From: a virus | Virus record (IMG/VR): IMGVR_UViG_3300017963_000779 | Coordinates: 1 to 22,416 of that record | DNA: 22,416 nt | Strand: one strand, 5' to 3' | Part shown: piece after piece, positions 952-20,545 of the stretch | Layout of the letters: every line of letters starts with the position of its first letter | How positions within the stretch are numbered: the stretch's first letter is position 1 | Made by a program: the position numbers and the translations under genes | Notes under the pieces: generated by a model | What the model was told of the DNA's origin: nothing | Databases searched by the model: none | The model's input: the letters and a program-made list of their open reading frames with translations, nothing else

Positions 952-1197
952 TTAAATCACACAGGTTTCTAATCCCTGTCGTGATCCATGGTGGAGCAAC
1001 TCATAAGGTCTGAACTGGGTACCCTTTTTAGAGTTGCAAGATTTGCACCGATAGTAAACACGCATTCGATCTGCAGTATCTGGATTTTCTAATCGCCTGC
1101 ATGTTTTGCAAACACTTCTACGCCCGTCTTTTCGATCGCATTGGCGATGAAACGATTCCAAATGTTTGAATTCTTTACACTGTGCGCAACGTTTCAT
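952..1197 (-). CDS. 81-aa zinc-knuckle protein, possible internally deleted endonuclease VII
   Basis: Small cysteine-rich protein, probably zinc-binding. ATG at 1197 with AAGGG 5 nt upstream; the TAA overlaps the ribosome binding site of the sheath gene. It has C4-x2-C7, C30-x2-C33 and C51-x2-C54 pairs. The first two pairs have exactly the spacing (23 residues from C7 to C30) seen in the endonuclease VII gene at 14130-14597 (C7/C10 and C33/C36). C51-K-S-C-N-S also resembles that protein's last knuckle (C-P-R-C-N-S), but the intervening DHDHKTG catalytic block is absent. By my count the gene is about 43% GC (105 of 246), far below its neighbours, which suggests recent transfer. It could instead be an independent zinc-finger protein. 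The reading frame continues open upstream of 1197 into the neighbouring gene, but that part has shadow-like composition. Confidence 0.68.
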   Translation of the reverse strand: MKRCAQCKEFKHLESFHRQCDRKDGRRSVCKTCRRLENPDTADRMRVYYRCKSCNSKKGTQFRPYELLHHGSRQGLETCVI

Positions 1198-1205
1198 TTC
1201 AACCC

Positions 1206-2573
1206 TTACGGCTCTGGGACCTCGAACTCCTCTGTCTCGGTGGTGGGCACAGGGGCCTCTGCCGCCAGCGCCTCCTGCTCCTCGAGGGAGTCTATCCGGT
1301 TGTATCCCAGGTTCGTTGTCAGCACCCCGTAGGTGTCGCGCGCCCTTGAAAGCTGAACCGCGACGTCTTCGACGCGGAAAGTGACCCGGTTGATCCTGAG
1401 GTCCGAGCTGTTCTCGACCGGGTTGACCGCGGTGAACTCCTCGATCAGCCAGATCCGGTATCTCCTGTCGGTTGCTCGGCTCCTCAGAAACGGCCCCGCC
1501 TCGCTGGCCGGCCCCTCCTCGAGGAGCCTCATGAACGCCTCCTGCAGGCGGTGCTGCTGGCGGGTCCGGTCCGTCCGGAGCTCCGCGGTCACCTCGAAAG
1601 TCATTCTCCTGGGGGGCGGAACCTCTACGGCCGCCCCGGTGTCTTTCCTGACGATACCCGAAGTTCCCCACAGAGGGTATGAAGATGAGCGAACGGCGTT
1701 CGTGTCCCTCAGAATGATCTGGGGAAGTTTGGACACCTCCTCGAAGTCCTGGTGGGTGTCCCAGGCCACCTCGGGCGCCACCAGCAACCTGAGGTACGGC
1801 TGGGACGCTATCGGGATCGAGGAACTCAGCGTGATCTCTCTGGTCCCGCCGTCGTAGCTGGACAGCAGGTCTACGAGGTGGTCGGGGTCTAGCGTGTCGT
1901 CGAACACCGCGTCAACCCCTGCGATGTTCAGGTTCGCGCCGGCCCCCTCCTTCATGTAGTCGTCGAGGTCTATGGTCGAGGTCGCCGAGCCGAGCGGGGG
2001 AAGCGCGGCGTCCACGATGAACTGCAGCTCGTCCTGAAACGTCGCCACCAAGGAGTCGAGCAGCGCGTCGTCTATCCAGTCGACCGGACCCTCCCACATG
2101 ACCTTCACGAGCTCGACAGCTGGGGTGACCTTGCTGTTCGTGGTAGCCAAGTTGACTACCACGGCGAACTTCCTGGCCGTGACGTCGAGCGTCGCCAGGT
2201 TGGCGTTGATCTCGGCCTCGGTGTTCCACTCTCCCGCTCCGGCCGCGGACCACATGGCGCCGTCCCACCACATCTCGTCCGTGCCGTCGAAGATCCTGAG
2301 CCCGATAGAGGTGTCGTCCGGGGTGGTGGCAAACACCTGCACCATGTTCAACGAGCGCATGGCTTGGGGCTCGTAGGTGCGGGATCGGGCCGAAATGTCA
2401 GCGTCCGTTGAGTATCTGGGACCCGCCAAGGTGTCGACCAGCTTCAGCTTGACCTGGTGGTCCTCTGGGTCGAGCCTGATCTTGGCGCTGTCCGAGAGCA
2501 CGAGCCCGCTCCTGGGGTCGAAGCCCTGCCCAGGGATCCAGCACACGTCGGTGATCACTCGCGCCGTCTGCAT
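1206..2573 (-). CDS. Virion structural protein, 455 aa, neck/tail junction region
   Basis: Function not recognised. Its position between the gp10-like neck gene and the tail sheath suggests a role at the head-tail junction or tail completion. ATG at 2573 lies one base after the TGA of the upstream gene (TGAcATG), so translation is probably coupled. The protein is mixed alpha/beta, with no signal peptide or membrane segment. The second half (about residues 320-430) contains TFEVTAELRTD, a helical RTRQQHRLQEAFMRLLEEG stretch, and YRIWLIEEFTAV followed by RVTFRVEDVAVQL. The alternation of strands and one helix is compatible with a tail-terminator-like fold, but that is inference from context. 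The C-terminus is an acidic tail rich in E, P and T. The TAA at 1206 lies 8 nt before the start of the low-GC 81-aa gene. The gene is certain; the function is open. Confidence 0.85.
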   Translation of the reverse strand: MQTARVITDVCWIPGQGFDPRSGLVLSDSAKIRLDPEDHQVKLKLVDTLAGPRYSTDADISARSRTYEPQAMRSLNMVQVFATTPDDTSIGLRIFDGTDEMWWDGAMWSAAGAGEWNTEAEINANLATLDVTARKFAVVVNLATTNSKVTPAVELVKVMWEGPVDWIDDALLDSLVATFQDELQFIVDAALPPLGSATSTIDLDDYMKEGAGANLNIAGVDAVFDDTLDPDHLVDLLSSYDGGTREITLSSSIPIASQPYLRLLVAPEVAWDTHQDFEEVSKLPQIILRDTNAVRSSSYPLWGTSGIVRKDTGAAVEVPPPRRMTFEVTAELRTDRTRQQHRLQEAFMRLLEEGPASEAGPFLRSRATDRRYRIWLIEEFTAVNPVENSSDLRINRVTFRVEDVAVQLSRARDTYGVLTTNLGYNRIDSLEEQEALAAEAPVPTTETEEFEVPEP

Positions 2574-13409: not shown

Positions 13410-14057
13410 CTACTTCTTGCGGTTCGAGACCATCTTGTGCACCGACGTTCCGGCCCACAGGCTCTTATTCTCCTCAGACTTCTCGACCTTCTCGGTGCCG
13501 GACGGGACGCTGTCGCCCTTCGCGACGGCGCGCACGGTCACTGCCTTTTCCACCTTCTGGGCCTGCTCTCCGAGCTGCTTCTCCACGGTCTCGAGCCGCT
13601 CCGACACGGTGGCCAGCGCCTTCAGGACCTCGTCCAGTCTGTCATCAGACTTTTGAACAGGCTCCTCTGCCTGCTTCTCCTCAGTCTCCTCTGCCTGCTC
13701 CTCGGTGGTCTCCTCGGTTGCCTCTTCTGAAGTCTCAGCCACCTCTTCCGAAGCCTCCTCGGTGGCCTCCACCTCGGTGGCCTCTTCCGACTTCTCTACC
13801 TGGGCCTCCTCGGCTTGGGTCTCGTCCTCGGATTTCTGGACCACCTGATCCTCGGCGGCCACTTCCTCGACCTGGACATTCTCTTCAGTCTTCATCTCGT
13901 CCTCCTGGGTTTCGGCGTCCGCCGGTTTTCTCTTCACGATCACCCACCTCTCCTCGTTGGCGGCGGCGTCGACCAGCGACACCTCCTCGACGCGGAGGTC
14001 CACCAGGCGCTCGGTGACGGGGTCTCCCTCCGCCTTGATCACGTTCTTATTACTCAT
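13410..14057 (-). CDS. Glutamate-rich scaffold-like capsid assembly protein
   Basis: 215 aa. I place the start at ATG 14057, with GGAG 6 nt upstream; the longer open frame to 14240 runs through the endonuclease gene on the other strand and is not credible. Residues 23-43 (VEEVSLVDAAANEERWVIVKR) match the 'eVSLVD-x-aAN-x-x-f-x-vvKR' motif, which I know from prohead protease and scaffold-associated phage proteins. Residues about 48-134 are a long acidic low-complexity run (E with A, T, S, V, Q). Residues 140-172 form a coiled coil (LDEVLKALATVSERLETVEKQLG), and the C-terminus is basic (KSLWAGTSVHKMVSNRKK). Its place directly before the major capsid gene, with no other scaffold candidate, supports scaffolding. 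It would probably be cut and expelled by the protease encoded just upstream. Confidence 0.75.
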   Translation of the reverse strand: MSNKNVIKAEGDPVTERLVDLRVEEVSLVDAAANEERWVIVKRKPADAETQEDEMKTEENVQVEEVAAEDQVVQKSEDETQAEEAQVEKSEEATEVEATEEASEEVAETSEEATEETTEEQAEETEEKQAEEPVQKSDDRLDEVLKALATVSERLETVEKQLGEQAQKVEKAVTVRAVAKGDSVPSGTEKVEKSEENKSLWAGTSVHKMVSNRKK

Positions 14058-14129
14058 TGCAGTCTCCGTTCCACTTTCTGCCCCGTTCCACATTGTGCTG
14101 AACAGTGAAACCGTGATAAGGTACACAAT
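14058..14129. promoter_or_regulatory. Divergent spacer between the endonuclease (+) and scaffold (-) genes
   Basis: 72 bp separating two divergent starts. On the plus strand GATAAGG (14115-14121) supplies the endonuclease's AAGG ribosome binding site. On the minus strand CACAAT with TTATCA 16 bp upstream is a weak promoter candidate for the scaffold and capsid genes. The region is AT-richer than the flanking structural genes, in line with arrival together with the endonuclease. Confidence 0.35.
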
Positions 14130-14597
14130 ATGAAACCGATGAAACGTTGCACCCGATGTGGTGATGAAAAACCATTTGACTCGTTTTACCGCCGAACCAA
14201 GTCTGGTGACGGCTTGAGTTCGTACTGCAAGGCGTGCCACAACGAATACTGTCGGAGTAGGTATGTTCGCTCAACTCCAAACCTGTCTGACGAGGAACGC
14301 TCTGAACGTGCTCGTGCCCGAAACAAGGAGTACTATTGGAAAAACAGAGACAAGCGCTTGGTAGCTGCTCGAGCTTCCAAGTATGGGATGAGCAAGGAGC
14401 AAGCGTGGCTCGTGCACTTCTCAACTCGGTGTGAGATCTGCGGGGACTCAATAAATGGGATGAGAAAGCACGTCGATCACGATCACAAGACCGGAGAGTT
14501 TCGAGGCGTGCTATGTCCCCGATGCAACAGTGGTTTGGGGATGTTCCTAGACAACCCGAAACTCCTGAAAGCTGCATCTGACTATTTGAGCCGCTGA
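14130..14597 (+). CDS. Recombination endonuclease VII / HNH-type nuclease
   Basis: 155-aa nuclease, the only plus-strand gene I support in the window. ATG at 14130 with AAGG 8 nt upstream. The N-terminus has a zinc ribbon (C7-x2-C10, C33-x2-C36). The core is the endonuclease VII-type beta-beta-alpha-metal site: C101-x2-C104, then HVDHDHKTG (114-122, with the D-H-D-H motif), and C129-x2-C132-N133 followed by LGMFLDNPKLLKAASDYL. Known members cut branched DNA or act as free-standing homing endonucleases. By my count it is about 51% GC (240 of 468), lower than its neighbours. It points against them and is wedged between the protease and scaffold genes, with only 8 nt to the protease stop. All of this suggests a mobile insertion rather than a morphogenesis gene. 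Confidence 0.92.
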   Translation: MKPMKRCTRCGDEKPFDSFYRRTKSGDGLSSYCKACHNEYCRSRYVRSTPNLSDEERSERARARNKEYYWKNRDKRLVAARASKYGMSKEQAWLVHFSTRCEICGDSINGMRKHVDHDHKTGEFRGVLCPRCNSGLGMFLDNPKLLKAASDYLSR

Positions 14598-14605
14598 TCA
14601 TCTCT

Positions 14606-15379
14606 TCACTTCACAGGTACTTTTTTCGCGTAGCCACCGATGCTCAGCCCGGTGATCTCTCCTTTGCGGATCTTTCCGACCAGCTCGGGATCGTCGGTCC
14701 AGAGTTCCTGGTACCACGTCCCCTCGGAGATCTTCTTGACGCCGCCGCCAGGCAGCGGGAACGCGAAGTCGACCGGGGCTATGACGTTTTGGATGATCCT
14801 GACCTTGTCGGTGATCGCCTTCTGGTGCATGAAGCCGATGGTTCCGAACTCTCGCATAAACAGATCGTTGGCTTGTCGGATCTCTTGTGCGGAGATCACG
14901 CTGCCCTCACTGTCTGGAACTTCTGGCTTGCTCACTATGCCGATCATGCGGACGTCGTCGGTTGCAGGATCCGCTTCTTGTTTGCGAATCGGGAACAGCT
15001 CGCCCACCTTGGCAACCTCAACGTCCGGGATCGTGGATGCGTCGATCATGATTGGAATAGAATCTACTTCCGACGGGAGACCAACACTGACTGACAAGGT
15101 GACGGGGAACTCGATCTTGCTCATGCGCCGCTCCTCCTTTGGCCTGCCGATGACCGCCTTCACGCCTTCAGTCAGGGTGATTGTGCGAAAGCTTCCTGCT
15201 TGAAACTCGGAAGGCTCTCGCTGACGATATCTCCAAGAGTCCTCGGTCTCGTCGGGGGCGCCCTGCTTGACCCTGAAGTCGTGATCGCGCACCCACCTGG
15301 TCGCTTCCTCGCGGGTCTCGAAGCGCTCCTTCGACAGGATCAGGGTCTGGATCTCGGTCTGCTTGGCGACGTCGCTCAA
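14606..15379 (-). CDS. XkdF-type prohead maturation protease
   Basis: 257 aa. The start is a TTG at 15379 overlapping the upstream TGA (TTGA), with GAGG 7 nt upstream; no suitable ATG is near. The N-terminal domain (about 8-80) is the small module that often precedes phage head proteases: IQTLILSKERFETREEATRWV, then SWRYRQREPSEF and GVKAVIGRP. The protease domain (about 140-257) matches Peptidase_S78_2/XkdF: VPDSEGSVISAQEI, a helix NDLFMREFG, GFMHQKAI with candidate catalytic H185, a GTWYQELWTDDPELVGKI segment, and KGEITGLSIGGYAKKV with candidate nucleophile S246. In this family the enzyme trims scaffold and capsid proteins inside the prohead, and the following scaffold and capsid genes fit. 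The catalytic residue assignments are inferred from family layout. Confidence 0.87.
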   Translation of the reverse strand: MSDVAKQTEIQTLILSKERFETREEATRWVRDHDFRVKQGAPDETEDSWRYRQREPSEFQAGSFRTITLTEGVKAVIGRPKEERRMSKIEFPVTLSVSVGLPSEVDSIPIMIDASTIPDVEVAKVGELFPIRKQEADPATDDVRMIGIVSKPEVPDSEGSVISAQEIRQANDLFMREFGTIGFMHQKAITDKVRIIQNVIAPVDFAFPLPGGGVKKISEGTWYQELWTDDPELVGKIRKGEITGLSIGGYAKKVPVK

Positions 15380-15603
15380 AGATCAACCTCGTCGAGGGGT
15401 CTCAGGTTCTTGGCGATCTCCATCAGCCGCCTGAACCGCTCATCTGCCGCCTCGGCCCTCTTCGCCTCGGCCTCCCTCAGGTGCTCGTCGATCCGAGCCT
15501 GCTGCTCGTCCGACCTCCGGTGCCTCTCCCGTTCCCGGCGCTCCCTCTCCAACTTCTCTCGGGTCCGGCGGGACCAGACCCTCTTGTTCCCAGGCACGAG
15601 CAT
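15376..15603 (-). CDS. Small charged helical protein, about 73-75 aa
   Basis: Unrecognised. Almost entirely one Arg/Glu-rich helix: RRTREKLERERRERERHRRSDEQQARIDEHLREAEAKRAEAADERFRR, then MEIAKNLRPLDEVDL. Two starts are possible. The ATG at 15603 directly abuts GAAGGGG, which is too close; a GTG two codons later (15597) would have that site 6 nt upstream and is therefore plausible. The GGGG of this site can pair with CCCC 3 nt before it, so translation may be controlled. The stop overlaps the TTG of the protease by 4 nt, so it may mainly couple protease translation. A role as a minor scaffold or protease partner is a guess. Confidence 0.65.
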   Translation of the reverse strand: MLVPGNKRVWSRRTREKLERERRERERHRRSDEQQARIDEHLREAEAKRAEAADERFRRLMEIAKNLRPLDEVDL

Positions 15604-15677: not shown

Positions 15678-16388
15678 TCAAACGCGAGGAGGGAACAGGT
15701 GCCGGATCCTGGACAGGGCCACCTCCAGGTTGGACCTCAGCCCCACCTGGGCCTTCCTGATCGCCCTGACGTTGGGCACCCCCTCGATCAGGTCCTCCTC
15801 GTCCTCCGTGGAAAGCGTGGCCTGTATCTCGTCGAGGTGAACCCCGTCGGCGTACCCCTTCTGTATCAGGTTGACCTTCATCCGGTTCACCGTCTCGTCT
15901 GGGAGCCCCAGCACCAGCGCGTCCTGCGCCTCCTTGAACGAGGGGAGCTGCCCGTACATCGCGTGGGCGTACTCGTGCTTGAACGTGGCCTCGTCGTCCC
16001 TCACGGTGGAGATGAGGTAGAAGTCGTCGGTGCCGGCGAGCTTCTCCACGAACTCGGCGATGGCCAGCATCGACTCGTCGTACTCGTTCCAGTCAGGGAT
16101 CTCATCGCGCCTGTCGCGGAGCAGGGACAAGATCTCTCTCCCAGGGTAGTTGTAGCCGCAGAAGTCGTCAGGGTAGGTGAACGCGCCCTCGCCGAACTTG
16201 TGGGAGTACCACCGCATGTACGAGACCAGGCTGAAGATCTTGCCCCTGAACTCGTCACCGACCGACTCGTAGTGCTCCTGCACCCTGAGCATGCTCATCG
16301 CCATGTCGTAGTGGCTTGTCCATCCTATCCAGAAGATCCCGTTGCCGAGGTTCTTCAACCCGTGAAACGAGTCCAGGGCCCTGCTCAT
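15678..16388 (-). CDS. Putative zinc metalloprotease (HEYAH motif) in the head module
   Basis: 236 aa. I place the start at ATG 16388, which overlaps the PQ-loop gene's TGA by 4 nt and has AAGGAGGGG just upstream; the frame above it is shadow. H138-E-Y-A-H142 is a perfect HExxH zinc site in a helix after a strand (DDFYLISTVRDDEATFKHEYAHAMYG). About 44 residues later GYADGVHLDEIQA offers E187 (or D186) as third ligand, giving a gluzincin-like HExxH...E pattern. The 'HE-x-A-H ... GY ... DE-x-Q-A' order resembles small uncharacterised phage proteins. The N-terminal half is aromatic-rich (FWIGWTSHYD, YMRWYSHKFGEG). No signal peptide is seen. It could process a virion protein or act in the host. 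The motif is certain; activity and substrate are inferred. Confidence 0.72.
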   Translation of the reverse strand: MSRALDSFHGLKNLGNGIFWIGWTSHYDMAMSMLRVQEHYESVGDEFRGKIFSLVSYMRWYSHKFGEGAFTYPDDFCGYNYPGREILSLLRDRRDEIPDWNEYDESMLAIAEFVEKLAGTDDFYLISTVRDDEATFKHEYAHAMYGQLPSFKEAQDALVLGLPDETVNRMKVNLIQKGYADGVHLDEIQATLSTEDEEDLIEGVPNVRAIRKAQVGLRSNLEVALSRIRHLFPPRV

Positions 16389-16645
16389 GCTCCCCTCCTT
16401 GGTTTGAACTTGTACGCCATGATCACGCCGATGAGCGTGAGGTTCGCCGTGTAGTTGAAGATCACCGGCCAGATCGCCTTGGGCCACATGTAGACAAGGC
16501 CCGCGCCCTCTCCGAGGAACCACAGCACGAGGAAGCTGACGCTGAGATCGTCCGCGCGCTTCGTGCGCCAACACTTGATCGCTTGCGGCAGCGCGCACAC
16601 CGCGAAGCAGATCGCGCTGAACCAACCCACGAGCTCCATCGCCAT
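16385..16645 (-). CDS. PQ-loop / SemiSWEET-like membrane protein, 86 aa
   Basis: Predicted inner-membrane protein with three transmembrane helices (about residues 4-22, 36-54 and 59-78), the size and layout of bacterial SemiSWEET sugar transporters. The defining P20-Q21 pair sits at the end of helix 1 (FAVCALPQAIKCWRTKRAD), followed by the typical S-V-S-F-x-V-L-W-F at the start of helix 2. Helix 3 has the N-Y-x-x-N-L-T pattern and a basic cytoplasmic end (KFKPRRGA). ATG at 16645 has AGGGGG 7 nt upstream; ATG at 16639 is an alternative. It overlaps the metalloprotease gene by 4 nt, so the two are probably translated together. It is not a morphogenesis protein by family; a host-membrane or metabolite role is inferred. 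Confidence 0.8.
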   Translation of the reverse strand: MAMELVGWFSAICFAVCALPQAIKCWRTKRADDLSVSFLVLWFLGEGAGLVYMWPKAIWPVIFNYTANLTLIGVIMAYKFKPRRGA

Positions 16646-16775
16646 GGTCGCACCCCCTGTGAGTACGATCGTACCCCGAGAGGGTTCGAAAAACCAAACT
16701 CAAAGATTCTTTAGTGATGACGCATAATTATGCTTAATTATGCTTCAGAAGTACGGGAGTGTTTTTCTGAAAATT
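16646..16775 (-). promoter_or_regulatory. AT-rich regulatory spacer with two 12-bp palindromes and a direct repeat
   Basis: The longest non-coding stretch in the window, lying between the minor head gene and the PQ-loop gene. It holds the perfect palindromes GTACGATCGTAC (16663-16674) and GCATAATTATGC (16722-16733). The latter is part of a perfect 10-bp tandem repeat, TAATTATGCT (16725-16734 and 16735-16744). It is markedly richer in A and T than the coding DNA around it. CATAAT elements on the minus strand could be -10 boxes, but I find no good -35 at the right distance. It looks like an operator/promoter for the accessory genes downstream. Confidence 0.5.
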
Positions 16776-17771: not shown

Positions 17772-19745
17772 CTAGTTCTCTTCGTCGTCTTCGAGCGTTG
17801 GAGGCACGAACCCTCCGAACCTGCGCGCGGCCTCAGCCCTCAGCTGCTGCCTGAAGCTGTCCACGTCGGCGGAGAAGTTGGCCGGCTCCATGTCCCTGTC
17901 CCGGCCGGCGCTGGGGGTCCTCGTTCCGGTCCTGCCCTGCGAACTCGGCTCGGATCCGTCCACACTGGGGGATTTGTCCTTCATGACCTCGGTCAGGGTC
18001 AGGGTGAAGGGCTTGTCGGGGTCTATCACGTCCGCGTCGACCTCCCCGAGGTCCTGGTTGGTCACCAGGCCGAGCATCTTGCGGCTGATGCGAGGCGTCA
18101 TGCCTCCGGTCTTCTCGGCCATGGTCATGGCCTTGATGAGATCCTCGTTCTCGGTCACGTTCGGGCTGAGCAGCTTGAAAGTGGACCAGACTATCCCCAG
18201 CCGAAGCAGAACCTCCCTGGTGAAGAACCGGTTCACGCGGCCTCGTTCCGGGCCGAACACCTGCTCGTCTCCCAACTTGCGGCTCGCCTCGATCGTCTTG
18301 CCGGTGAAGTCGTCCGACTTGCCCACGAATATCGGGGGGAATCGCCACGCGCGGCGCACCCGTTCATCGTTGTTCGTGGTGTAGTTCACGAACAGCGCGT
18401 CGGTGTGCTGCTCGTTGGTCAGAGGCTTGACCTCGATGCGCATAGTCCCTGGATCCTTCAGGCCCTCGGAAGTCGGCTCGGCCTCCAGAAGAAGGAACTT
18501 GCTGTAGTTGTCGTCGCTCGCTATGGAGGTCTCGACGAACTCGCTGATCCTGCTCACGCTCTCGTCGGTCAGCATCCCGTTGGCCACCGTCACCACCATC
18601 GACGGGATGTTGTTGTTCTTGAACGTGGTGTAGTTGATCTCGTCGGCCGCCCTGCTTCCGAATATCGCGAACAGGTGGCCGATGTACCGCGGGAGTCCGT
18701 ACGGGCTGCGCGTCGAGTACAGGCACTGGTGGTGCACAGGGTTGGCGGCGTGCGCCACCGGAAACCCGACCACCCCCTCCTTGACCACGAGGTCTCCGCC
18801 AGGCCCCATCGTGAACCGGTGCTTGACCTTTCCGTCAGGGTCGGCCTCGAGCAGCTTCTCCTCGCTGACGGGCTCGCCGTCGAGGCAGCTTATCAACCTG
18901 GGATCCCCGAGCTCCTTGAACCACACCGCCTTGTCGCCGCGCCGCTGCACGTATCTCCGAAAACGCTTGTACCTGAGCTGGGTCTCGAGGGTGTACGCCA
19001 CCTCCTCGACCACGGCCTGCTTGCGGACCATCTGGAGGTCGGCGCCGTCGCTTGAGATCTCTGGCTCGTCGTCCGTCGGAACCTCGACCACCCTGACGTG
19101 CTTCTTGACCCTCAGCTCCTCGCACTGGGTCGGCTCGTCGTCGGGCGGGGTCATGCGCATCGTCCAAGCCGGCAGGTGGTTGAGCCCGTCGAGCTCCCCG
19201 GTCGTCGGCACCTCGACGAACTCGACGTACCGGTTGCCGGTGGCCTCGAGGTCGCGGCGCATCCGCTCCCGCAGCTCCTCGAAGCTCCCGCCAGGGTAGG
19301 CGGTCTCGAAGAAGTTCTCAGCGACTGCCCTCTCCTCGGCGAGGATCTGAAGTATGGCGGGATCTGTGTCCTCGTCGATCGGGATCCGCGGCTCCAGCTT
19401 CCACCCGAACAGCTCGACGTTGACCGCCATGGCGTCGATCGCGGGCCCCACCTCGGAGCTGTTCTCGACCAGCATGGCGAGCGTCAGCATGTCGTAGGGA
19501 GGCTCGACCACCTTGCCCTCGCAGGCCATGCGGATGAACGGGTCTACCGGGATGCTCTTGGACTCCCCGGCTGACGCCCCGTCGCCAGAGGCCGCCGCGC
19601 GCTGCTTGCGCACGTCTGACATGCCCAGGATCGCGGCCCTGATCGCGCGCTTGTTTCGCTTCTGGATCTCGCCGGGGGTCGGGTTGTCTGAATGATCCCG
19701 CTGGAGATCCACGACGGCTCCGAGCCGCTGCTTGTCTGACATCAT
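17772..19745 (-). CDS. Portal protein, PBSX type
   Basis: Forms the ring through which DNA is packaged and ejected. 657 aa; ATG at 19745 overlaps the preceding TGA by 4 nt, with a second ATG one codon later (MMSD). The diagnostic core (349-390) reads YGLPRYIGHLFAIFGSRA and continues NYTTFKNNNIPSMV, the classic PBSX-portal segment. The clip/stem region includes NEQHTDALFVNYTTNNDERVRRAWRFPPIFVG and the following TGKTIEASRKLGDEQVFGP. The wing-like N-terminal half has ELFGWKLEPR and FEELRERMRRDLEATGNRYVEFV. The C-terminal ~100 residues (after about 555) are a hydrophilic Ser/Gly/Asp/Glu extension, which makes this longer than a typical ~500-aa PBSX portal. The minor head gene follows immediately, as usual. 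Confidence 0.94.
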   Translation of the reverse strand: MMSDKQRLGAVVDLQRDHSDNPTPGEIQKRNKRAIRAAILGMSDVRKQRAAASGDGASAGESKSIPVDPFIRMACEGKVVEPPYDMLTLAMLVENSSEVGPAIDAMAVNVELFGWKLEPRIPIDEDTDPAILQILAEERAVAENFFETAYPGGSFEELRERMRRDLEATGNRYVEFVEVPTTGELDGLNHLPAWTMRMTPPDDEPTQCEELRVKKHVRVVEVPTDDEPEISSDGADLQMVRKQAVVEEVAYTLETQLRYKRFRRYVQRRGDKAVWFKELGDPRLISCLDGEPVSEEKLLEADPDGKVKHRFTMGPGGDLVVKEGVVGFPVAHAANPVHHQCLYSTRSPYGLPRYIGHLFAIFGSRAADEINYTTFKNNNIPSMVVTVANGMLTDESVSRISEFVETSIASDDNYSKFLLLEAEPTSEGLKDPGTMRIEVKPLTNEQHTDALFVNYTTNNDERVRRAWRFPPIFVGKSDDFTGKTIEASRKLGDEQVFGPERGRVNRFFTREVLLRLGIVWSTFKLLSPNVTENEDLIKAMTMAEKTGGMTPRISRKMLGLVTNQDLGEVDADVIDPDKPFTLTLTEVMKDKSPSVDGSEPSSQGRTGTRTPSAGRDRDMEPANFSADVDSFRQQLRAEAARRFGGFVPPTLEDDEEN

Positions 19746-20140
19746 CCCACCCTGTGGAAGCTCGGCAGCCCTGAGACCTCGAGCTTGACCCGATCGGTGT
19801 TGATCGCCCCTCCGACGATGTTGTCCACCCTGAAGTACACCGACGGGTGCCTGTACACCTCGTGGACCTCGAGCCCGTCGCCGCTGTACGTGACGGTCGC
19901 CGGGGTGTTGTCGGCCACGAAGGCCCCGGCCTCGTCGCTCCAGAAGTACGGGGTGACGTCCGCGGCGGTGGCCGAGTTGTAGAACGTGGCCACGACGGCC
20001 ACGCGGTTGAACTCTCCCATGTTGATCCCAGCCCCCTTGTAGGTGGGCAGGTCTCCAGGCAGCGCCTCGTCGTTCTGGACCACCCGGTTGAGGTGGTAGG
20101 TGGGCGAGTAGCTTATCTCCGTGTGCAGCTCGGCGGCCAT
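19742..20140 (-). CDS. Small beta-rich virion-like protein, 132 aa (tandem paralogue 2)
   Basis: Unrecognised. It is the downstream member of a tandem pair with the gene at 20156-20545. Shared blocks include HLNRVVQND, the nearly identical NSATAADVTPYFWSD, DNTPATVTYSGDGL, SVYFRVDNIVGGAINTDRVKLEVSGLP and an H-x-x-G end. ATG at 20140; the stop overlaps the portal start by 4 nt, so production is coupled to the portal. The predicted structure is a compact beta sandwich with no signal or membrane segment. Small soluble beta proteins like this are often decoration proteins, yet the position between terminase and portal is unusual for one. Function unknown. Confidence 0.75.
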   Translation of the reverse strand: MAAELHTEISYSPTYHLNRVVQNDEALPGDLPTYKGAGINMGEFNRVAVVATFYNSATAADVTPYFWSDEAGAFVADNTPATVTYSGDGLEVHEVYRHPSVYFRVDNIVGGAINTDRVKLEVSGLPSFHRVG

Positions 20141-20155
20141 GTCAGCCTCCCATTG

Positions 20156-20545
20156 CTAGCCGATCTCGTGGTACATCGGCAGGCCCGCGATCTCCATCTT
20201 GACGCGGTCGGTGTCGACCGCGCCGCCCACGATGCTCTCGACGCGGAAGAACACCGACCCATGCCGGTTCACCGCGTACTTGTACAGCCCGTCGCCGCTG
20301 AAGGTCACCGTCACCGGGGTGTTGTCGGTCACGAACGCCCCCTTGGCGTCGCTCCAGAAGTACGGGGTCACGTCCGCGGCGGTGGCGCTGTTGTGAAAGC
20401 TGGCAATCACCACGACCTCGTCGAAGTCGGCCAGGTTGAGGCCGCCGCGCTTGGTCGCGGGGAGCGCCGAGTCGTTGTTCTGCACGGTGCGGTGCAGCGT
20501 GAAGTGCGGCGCGTAGGTGATCTCTGAAAGGTTCTCGACGCCCAT
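20156..20545 (-). CDS. Small beta-rich virion-like protein, 129 aa (tandem paralogue 1)
   Basis: Unrecognised. ATG at 20545; a GGAGG element lies upstream near the end of the 163-aa gene, and only 3 nt separate the two genes. Beta strands run throughout: EITYAPHFTLHRTVQNND, DEVVVIASFHNS, TPYFWSDAKGAFV, VTVTFSGDGLYKYAV and SVFFRVESIVGGAVDTDRVKMEIAGLP. By eye about half of the residues match the downstream paralogue, with differences concentrated in the first 40 residues and around YKYAVNRHG. The shared FWSD-x-x-G-AFV-x-DNTP-x-TVT-x-SGDGL core suggests the same fold with a different binding face. Confidence 0.75.
   Translation of the reverse strand: MGVENLSEITYAPHFTLHRTVQNNDSALPATKRGGLNLADFDEVVVIASFHNSATAADVTPYFWSDAKGAFVTDNTPVTVTFSGDGLYKYAVNRHGSVFFRVESIVGGAVDTDRVKMEIAGLPMYHEIG

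What the first reader, a model, noticed from the sequence alone, without database searches (positions are those of the whole stretch)
15678..16645. PQ-loop membrane protein and HEYAH metalloprotease form a coupled pair inside the head module
An 86-aa three-helix PQ-loop/SemiSWEET-like protein overlaps by 4 nt a 236-aa HExxH protein, placed between the minor head gene and the prohead protease. Neither belongs to a known morphogenesis family. The overlap, the strong RBS and a dedicated palindrome-bearing upstream spacer suggest a co-expressed unit with its own control. Possible roles are a membrane-level system such as superinfection exclusion, envelope remodelling or metabolite export with a membrane-bound protease partner. 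The coupling is seen; the joint function is inference.
Basis: partly seen in the sequence, partly recalled or inferred. Interest (0 to 1): 0.72.

Follow-up and report, generated by a model that had tools for sequence, protein, structure and literature searches.

The report
Inserted phage transporter–metalloprotease gene pair
A phage carries two extra overlapping genes wedged into its head-building operon, one for a tiny SemiSWEET-shaped membrane transporter and one for a zinc protease of a widespread, apparently uncatalogued family; its relatives lack both genes, but some giant phages carry both proteins with what looks like the tag that loads proteins into the virus particle.

Summary
In detail: an 86-aa PQ-loop protein overlaps a 236-aa HExxH protein by ATGA, with a strong ribosome site and a palindromic low-GC spacer upstream. 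The pairing is not conserved. Ten related head-module loci run straight from minor head gene to prohead protease, so this is an accessory (moron-like) insertion. The PQ-loop protein has a SemiSWEET fold but belongs to a phage subfamily with an invariant intramembrane Glu. The HEYAH protein belongs to a large family (288 IMG/VR loci, plus Bradyrhizobium, CPR and DPANN) with no curated-library or solved-structure match. Its invariant residues (HExxH, later Tyr, Asp-Glu) mirror the active site of Pro-Pro endopeptidases; it is soluble, not membrane-bound. Both families co-occur elsewhere, usually far apart. In three giant phages both proteins carry leaders resembling the T4 capsid-targeting sequence, suggesting virion delivery there; the window proteins lack it. 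Best reading: an accessory cassette, expressed with the head genes, of a solute transporter and a host-directed gluzincin-type peptidase. Joint function, and packaging in this phage, are unproven.

The parts
16646..16775 (-). 130-nt low-GC spacer upstream of the PQ gene, part of the inserted cassette; possible regulatory region
   Evidence: GC 0.42 against 0.635 for the window; no counterpart in relatives; no sigma-70 match
16663..16674 (.). perfect 12-nt palindrome GTACGATCGTAC just upstream of the PQ ribosome site
16722..16743 (.). two copies of a GCATAATTATGC palindromic element
   Evidence: 2 matches, 0 of 100 shuffles reach 2
16385..16645 (-). 86-aa PQ-loop protein with SemiSWEET fold, three transmembrane helices, phage 'GE' subfamily
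16385..16388 (-). ATGA overlap of stop and start codons
16394..16400 (-). AAGGAGG ribosome site of the HEYAH gene, inside the PQ gene
15678..16388 (-). 236-aa HEYAH protein, predicted soluble zinc metallopeptidase of an unnamed family
16266..16286 (-). family-invariant R35-x-QE-x-YE motif
15963..15977 (-). HEYAH = HExxH motif (residues 138-142)
   Evidence: invariant in 90 of 90 family members
15852..15854 (-). invariant Tyr179, candidate catalytic tyrosine
   Evidence: compare PPEP-3 Tyr190
15828..15833 (-). invariant Asp186-Glu187, candidate third zinc ligand (Glu187)
   Evidence: compare PPEP-3 Glu196-Glu197
15376..15603 (-). 75-aa charged ORF between the HEYAH gene and the protease; no family match; may or may not belong to the insertion

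Best explanation
The two genes form an accessory, moron-like cassette inserted between the minor head gene and the prohead protease and translated together from one transcript. Shown: both genes are absent at this site in relatives; they overlap by ATGA and the second has a strong ribosome site; the PQ protein is predicted to have the SemiSWEET fold; the HEYAH protein has a high-confidence model and keeps the family's complete HExxH...Tyr...Asp-Glu residue set. Inferred: the PQ protein dimerises in the host inner membrane and moves a small polar solute, perhaps cationic or proton-coupled, because its subfamily has an invariant glutamate in helix 2. The HEYAH protein is a soluble zinc endopeptidase that works like a Pro-Pro endopeptidase (gluzincin type) and cuts a specific protein, most likely of the host. 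The two are partners in expression rather than subunits of one complex. In T4-like giant phages both appear to be tagged for the capsid and would be injected; in this phage their place in the head operon points to late expression, and packaging is possible but unproven.
For: Empty site in ten related loci and no copy in nine related records. PQ: PF04193 above cut-off, SemiSWEET structures by sequence and fold, Z 12.8, rmsd 1.6 over 81 residues, invariant E46. HEYAH: 90 non-identical members with invariant HExxH, Y179, D186, E187, model pLDDT 94.8, the only top-ranked VIA matches that span nearly the whole model are zinc peptidases (PPEP-2 Z 4.8 over 3-222, collagenase Z 3.4), residue order as in PPEP-3 (PMC12828418). 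Soluble: no hydrophobic segment. Separable genes: L067 has the HExxH gene without the PQ gene of its sister L065, and elsewhere the two lie kilobases apart.
Against: The cassette's coding GC and third-position GC match its neighbours, so composition does not mark it as recent. No promoter or terminator was found. The PPEP resemblance rests on a Z below 5, which is weak, and on residue order; zinc geometry could not be measured. Co-occurrence of the two families in several lineages could mean a functional link that this reading plays down. Host, substrate and solute are unknown.
Confidence: 0.55

Rival explanations
1. Both proteins are packaged in this phage's virion and ejected with the DNA as an entry kit: the peptidase disarms a host protein at once, and the PQ protein inserts in the membrane.
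For: Placement between minor head gene and prohead protease. In LR756502.1 and the L163 and L164 records (giant phages) both proteins have leaders resembling the T4 capsid-targeting sequence, and in LR756502.1 the HExxH gene is two genes from a T4-like portal (portal match phrog_213).
Against: The window proteins have no such leader and this phage has an XkdF-type, not a T4-type, protease. Most HExxH-family members also lack the leader and lie among replication and metabolic genes. No proteomic data.
Confidence: 0.17
2. The pair is a true functional couple: the peptidase makes or releases a peptide or amino acid that the PQ transporter moves, or the two form a complex.
For: ATGA overlap here; the two families share genomes in the giant-phage clade, the L094 record, the L167 record and the window. 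In INPHARED the only record with this PQ type is one of two with the HExxH protein. A different PQ type lies 0.8 kb from the HExxH gene in L065/L068.
Against: Overlap is seen only here; elsewhere the genes are usually kilobases to hundreds of kilobases apart, 20 of 23 other PQ records have no HExxH gene, and most HExxH records have no PQ gene.
Confidence: 0.15
3. A lysis-related pair: the small three-helix protein acts like a holin and the peptidase attacks the cell wall or envelope.
For: PQ genes of the same subfamily sit next to or near a muramidase (L165), a GH19 enzyme (L166) and M23 peptidases (L177, L178).
Against: HExxH-family members occur in DPANN archaea, which lack murein, and in CPR and Bradyrhizobium chromosomes; no murein-hydrolase family matches HEYAH; the PQ protein keeps transporter-type conserved residues.
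Confidence: 0.06
4. Chance passenger genes with no present role in this phage.
For: Variable presence; HEYAH is on the longest branch of its family tree.
Against: Both reading frames are intact, the catalytic and subfamily-invariant residues are kept, and the start signals are good.
Confidence: 0.07

Closest known systems
SemiSWEET sugar transporters (PDB 4qnc, 5uhs, 4rng, 4x5m)
   Same: Length, three helices, PQ motif, fold (Z 12-13), 27-28% identity
   Different: Below the NCBIfam SemiSWEET_2 cut-off (47 against 80 bits); invariant Glu in helix 2 and NYxxN in helix 3 across 20 phage homologues; substrate unknown
Pro-Pro endopeptidases PPEP-1/2/3 (gluzincin-type zinc peptidases)
   Same: HExxH, later Tyr and acidic pair with close spacing; PPEP-2 aligned over residues 3-222
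   Different: About 10% identity, Z only 4.8, no sequence-profile match, no secretion signal; unique invariant RxQExYE and DWxGFNIP motifs
Zincin-like metallopeptidases of jumbo phages (SprT-like, ArdC-like; PMC7824862)
   Same: Phage-borne zincins proposed there to cut host proteins
   Different: No credible Pfam match of HEYAH to those families (SprT-like once, at E 0.059)
T4 internal proteins IPI, IPII, IPIII
   Same: Giant-phage homologues of both proteins start with a similar leader
   Different: The window proteins lack the leader; T4 internal proteins are not transporters or peptidases of these families
XacN1 ORF432 (BBA65580.1) and LR756502.1 homologues
   Same: Same family as HEYAH at 28-36% identity
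   Different: Not next to a PQ gene; ORF432 is annotated as an ABC transporter ATP-binding protein

Membership tests
PQ-loop superfamily (PF04193) | Profile score over the curated cut-off | tested here: met
   48.6 bits against 22
SemiSWEET transporters | Three-helix fold of one SemiSWEET protomer | tested here: met
   Foldseek TM 0.83-0.88, Z 12.8 to 4qnc and 5uhs
SemiSWEET transporters | NCBIfam SemiSWEET_2 score over cut-off | tested here: not met
   47.3 against 80 bits
SemiSWEET transporters | Homodimer that transports sugar | not testable with these tools
   needs multimer prediction and transport assay
Gluzincin-type zinc metallopeptidases (clan MA) | HExxH with two His ligands and catalytic Glu | tested here: met
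   invariant in 90 of 90 members
Gluzincin-type zinc metallopeptidases (clan MA) | Downstream Glu as third zinc ligand on the following helices | tested here: inconclusive
   Glu187 invariant and on a helix; geometry of the site not measured
Gluzincin-type zinc metallopeptidases (clan MA) | Peptidase activity | not testable with these tools
   needs enzyme assay
Pro-Pro endopeptidases (PPEP) | Overall fold | tested here: inconclusive
   PPEP-2 Z 4.8, rmsd 4.8, 129 residues
Pro-Pro endopeptidases (PPEP) | Secreted or wall-attached protein with export signal | tested here: not met
   no hydrophobic segment anywhere in HEYAH
Phage moron cassette | Present in one phage and absent at the same site in relatives | tested here: met
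   ten related loci without either gene
Phage moron cassette | Own promoter and terminator | tested here: inconclusive
   distinct spacer with palindromes but no sigma-70 or terminator match there
Phage moron cassette | Base composition different from neighbours | tested here: not met
   coding GC 0.61-0.62 and third-position GC 0.87-0.92, like neighbours; only the spacer differs
T4-type internal (ejected) protein | N-terminal capsid targeting sequence | tested here: not met
   absent in the window proteins; similar leaders only in giant-phage homologues
Holin-endolysin pair | Partner is a murein hydrolase | tested here: not met
   no murein-hydrolase family matches HEYAH

The most novel reading that the evidence does not exclude
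Some phages package a SemiSWEET-type membrane transporter and a dedicated zinc peptidase in the capsid and inject both as an entry kit; this phage has joined the two into one operon inside its head module. A transporter delivered from inside a virus head would be new.
Probability: 0.15. Interest if true: 0.82.

Novelty: new variant of a known kind. Interest (0 to 1): 0.48.

Why it matters
It exposes a large, strongly conserved peptidase-like family, shared by jumbo phages, Bradyrhizobium, CPR bacteria and DPANN archaea, that none of the curated libraries searched names and whose one annotated phage member found here is labelled an ABC transporter. It also shows a phage-specific SemiSWEET subfamily that in giant phages sits behind a capsid-tag-like leader. 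Together they make virion delivery of a transporter and a protease directly testable by proteomics.

Tried and rejected
Conserved two-gene unit: rejected, since the overlap is found only in the window and its two identical contigs. Known family for HEYAH: nothing credible in Pfam, NCBIfam, PHROGs, PADLOC or PDB sequences; one weak PADLOC hit (PDC-M22A, E 5e-4, one homologue only) was set aside. The 'ABC transporter' annotation of XacN1 ORF432 was set aside because the aligned region carries the HExxH-family motifs. Foldseek PDB hits of HEYAH (BHRF1, GroEL and others) are not significant; the top VIA row, RNA polymerase II (Z 4.9), covers only helices 134-229. A giant-virus environmental protein (A0A5J6VI82, E 1.3e-6) may be a further member and was not pursued. 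Structured RNA in the window: no Rfam hit. Virion detection of the XacN1 homologue: the paper text does not mention ORF432; its figure was not readable. Papers on PQ-loop proteins in phage genomes: none found in the held library. Chromosomal context of Bradyrhizobium, CPR and DPANN members: stand-alone genes, uninformative. Head-type flanks like the window's near other family members: none. dN/dS: not possible, the available copies are identical.

Full report
OBSERVATION. On the minus strand the window has, in order, terminase, portal, a Mu-F-like minor head gene, the 86-aa PQ-loop gene (16385-16645), the 236-aa HEYAH gene (15678-16388), a 75-aa charged ORF, an XkdF-like S78_2 protease and the major capsid gene. 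The two genes overlap by ATGA, AAGGAGG sits 5 nt before the second start, and a 130-nt spacer of GC 0.42 with a perfect 12-nt palindrome and a doubled GCATAATTATGC element lies upstream. Two corrections: HEYAH is soluble (no hydrophobic segment, net charge -14), and no sigma-70 promoter was found.

INSERTION. A portal search gave relatives at 56% (L014-L016) and 38-41% (L017-L026) identity. In the ten loci where both flanks are visible (L014, L015, L016, L018, L019, L021, L022, L023, L025, L026; several are near-identical, so perhaps five lineages) the minor head gene is followed by the protease with at most about 190 nt between, and neither gene is present (in L014 and L015 the called protease ORF overlaps the minor head gene because of an early TTG start). 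Whole-record searches of nine relatives were also negative. The pair occurs intact only in two contigs from other samples that are identical to the window over 2001 nt. It is an accessory insertion, though its third-position GC matches its neighbours.

PQ PROTEIN. It passes the PQ-loop cut-off, matches solved SemiSWEETs by sequence and is predicted to fold like them (pLDDT 85; Z 12.8, rmsd 1.6 over 81 residues). It misses the NCBIfam SemiSWEET_2 cut-off. An alignment of 20 phage homologues shows invariant C17, P20, F38, W42, G45, E46, Y52, N64, Y65 and N68. A glutamate at that place in helix 2 is not seen in the aligned solved SemiSWEETs; I infer a proton-coupled or cationic substrate, without a test.

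HEYAH PROTEIN. Direct searches of phage records found only LR756502.1 (two copies) and XacN1 ORF432, annotated as an ABC transporter ATP-binding protein. A profile from these found 288 tblastn-confirmed loci in IMG/VR and 26 in bacterial and archaeal genomes. In 90 non-identical sequences R35, Q37, E38, Y40, E41, F52, Y61, G78, N80, Y124, H138, E139, H142, Y179, D186 and E187 are invariant. The model is confident (pLDDT 94.8, pTM 0.90). Foldseek found no solved relative. VIA ranked PPEP-2 second at Z 4.8, aligned over 3-222, and listed collagenase peptidase domains lower; such Z values are weak by themselves. In PPEP-3 the active site is His153, Glu154, His157, Tyr190 and the pair Glu196-Glu197 (PMC12828418), matched here by H138, E139, H142, Y179 and D186-E187 with close spacing (first His to Tyr 41 against 37, first His to Glu 49 against 44). 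I infer a gluzincin-type zinc peptidase whose residue set is intact in the window copy. P0002 is a long branch nested among viral members, next to L044.

IS IT A PAIR? Starting from HExxH records, PQ genes lie within 3 kb only in L065/L068 (a different PQ type, with one other gene between; the sister L067 lacks it) and L094. Starting from 23 other records with the window's PQ subfamily, 3 carry the HExxH gene, about 11, 174 and 271 kb away. In INPHARED the PQ subfamily is found only in LR756502.1, which is one of two records with the HExxH gene; there they lie 164 kb apart. So the families seem to share genomes more often than expected, but the operon is particular to this phage. I did not run a lineage-matched background, so the strength of that tendency is open.

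CAPSID TAG. T4 internal proteins begin MKTYQEFIAE or MKTFKEF, and the leader of the internal proteins packages foreign proteins (PMC3012670, PMC10229621). A pattern of this kind hits exactly these 3 of 64 T4 genes, 5 of 90 genes in LR756502.1 loci and 7 of 61 in other giant-phage loci, against about 0.1 in shuffles, and none in the window. I wrote the pattern after seeing both the T4 and the giant-phage sequences, so the counts describe the resemblance and are not an independent test. PQ proteins of L161-L164 and LR756502.1 have such leaders or looser ones (MKKLKTYETFINEE in L164, MRNIKSYKDFANEE in LR756502.1), followed by a linker and the PQ domain. The HExxH proteins of LR756502.1 and of the L163 and L164 records begin MKYLSKYNMFIEQ, MRIIKTYKLFLEK and MKLIKSYKLFLEK. 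In LR756502.1 that gene is two genes upstream of a T4-like portal. This suggests, without proving it, packaging in those phages. These three phages are probably related, so they count as one lineage.

NEIGHBOURS. Genes next to HExxH members are varied (tRNA-His guanylyltransferase, adenylosuccinate-synthetase-like, RNA ligase, HNH), with one portal. PQ neighbours include a muramidase, a GH19 enzyme, M23 peptidases and a baseplate wedge gene, so a lysis role is kept as a minor rival.

VERDICT. An accessory transporter-plus-peptidase cassette. The kinds of the two proteins are well supported, the joint function is not, and virion delivery is a testable possibility.

Noticed in passing
14130-14597 (+), within about 14057-14606: An endonuclease VII-type ORF (PF02945, E 1.6e-18) lies on the opposite strand exactly where the protease-scaffold protein, one 587-657-aa ORF in L014 and L016, is split into two ORFs in the window; looks like a homing-endonuclease insertion that split the gene.
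   Followed up: partly
952-1671 (-): An ORF here contains a CAQCKEF...CKTCRR zinc-ribbon-like stretch resembling by eye the N-terminal part of the endonuclease VII-type ORF; no Pfam match for the piece tested.
   Followed up: partly
19742-20140 and 20156-20545 (-): Two adjacent genes between portal and terminase are paralogues; relatives L014-L016 have a single copy that matches both.
   Followed up: no
L008, L027, L161-L164: A common leader of the MKxLKxYxxFxE kind opens about a fifth to a quarter of the called genes in these giant phages (20 of 90 and 17 of 61, against about 2 in shuffles), implying many candidate capsid-targeted proteins.
   Followed up: partly
L119:4167-4868 (-) and L119:4968-5633 (+): A Yanofskybacteria (CPR) contig holds two divergent adjacent copies of the HExxH family.
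   Followed up: no
L065:3681-4304 (+): A gene with a GGIHGDEPAGN...DPNRHF pattern, resembling aspartoacylase/M14-type enzymes by eye, lies between the HExxH and PQ genes in L065 and L068 and is missing with the PQ gene in L067; no Pfam hit.
   Followed up: partly
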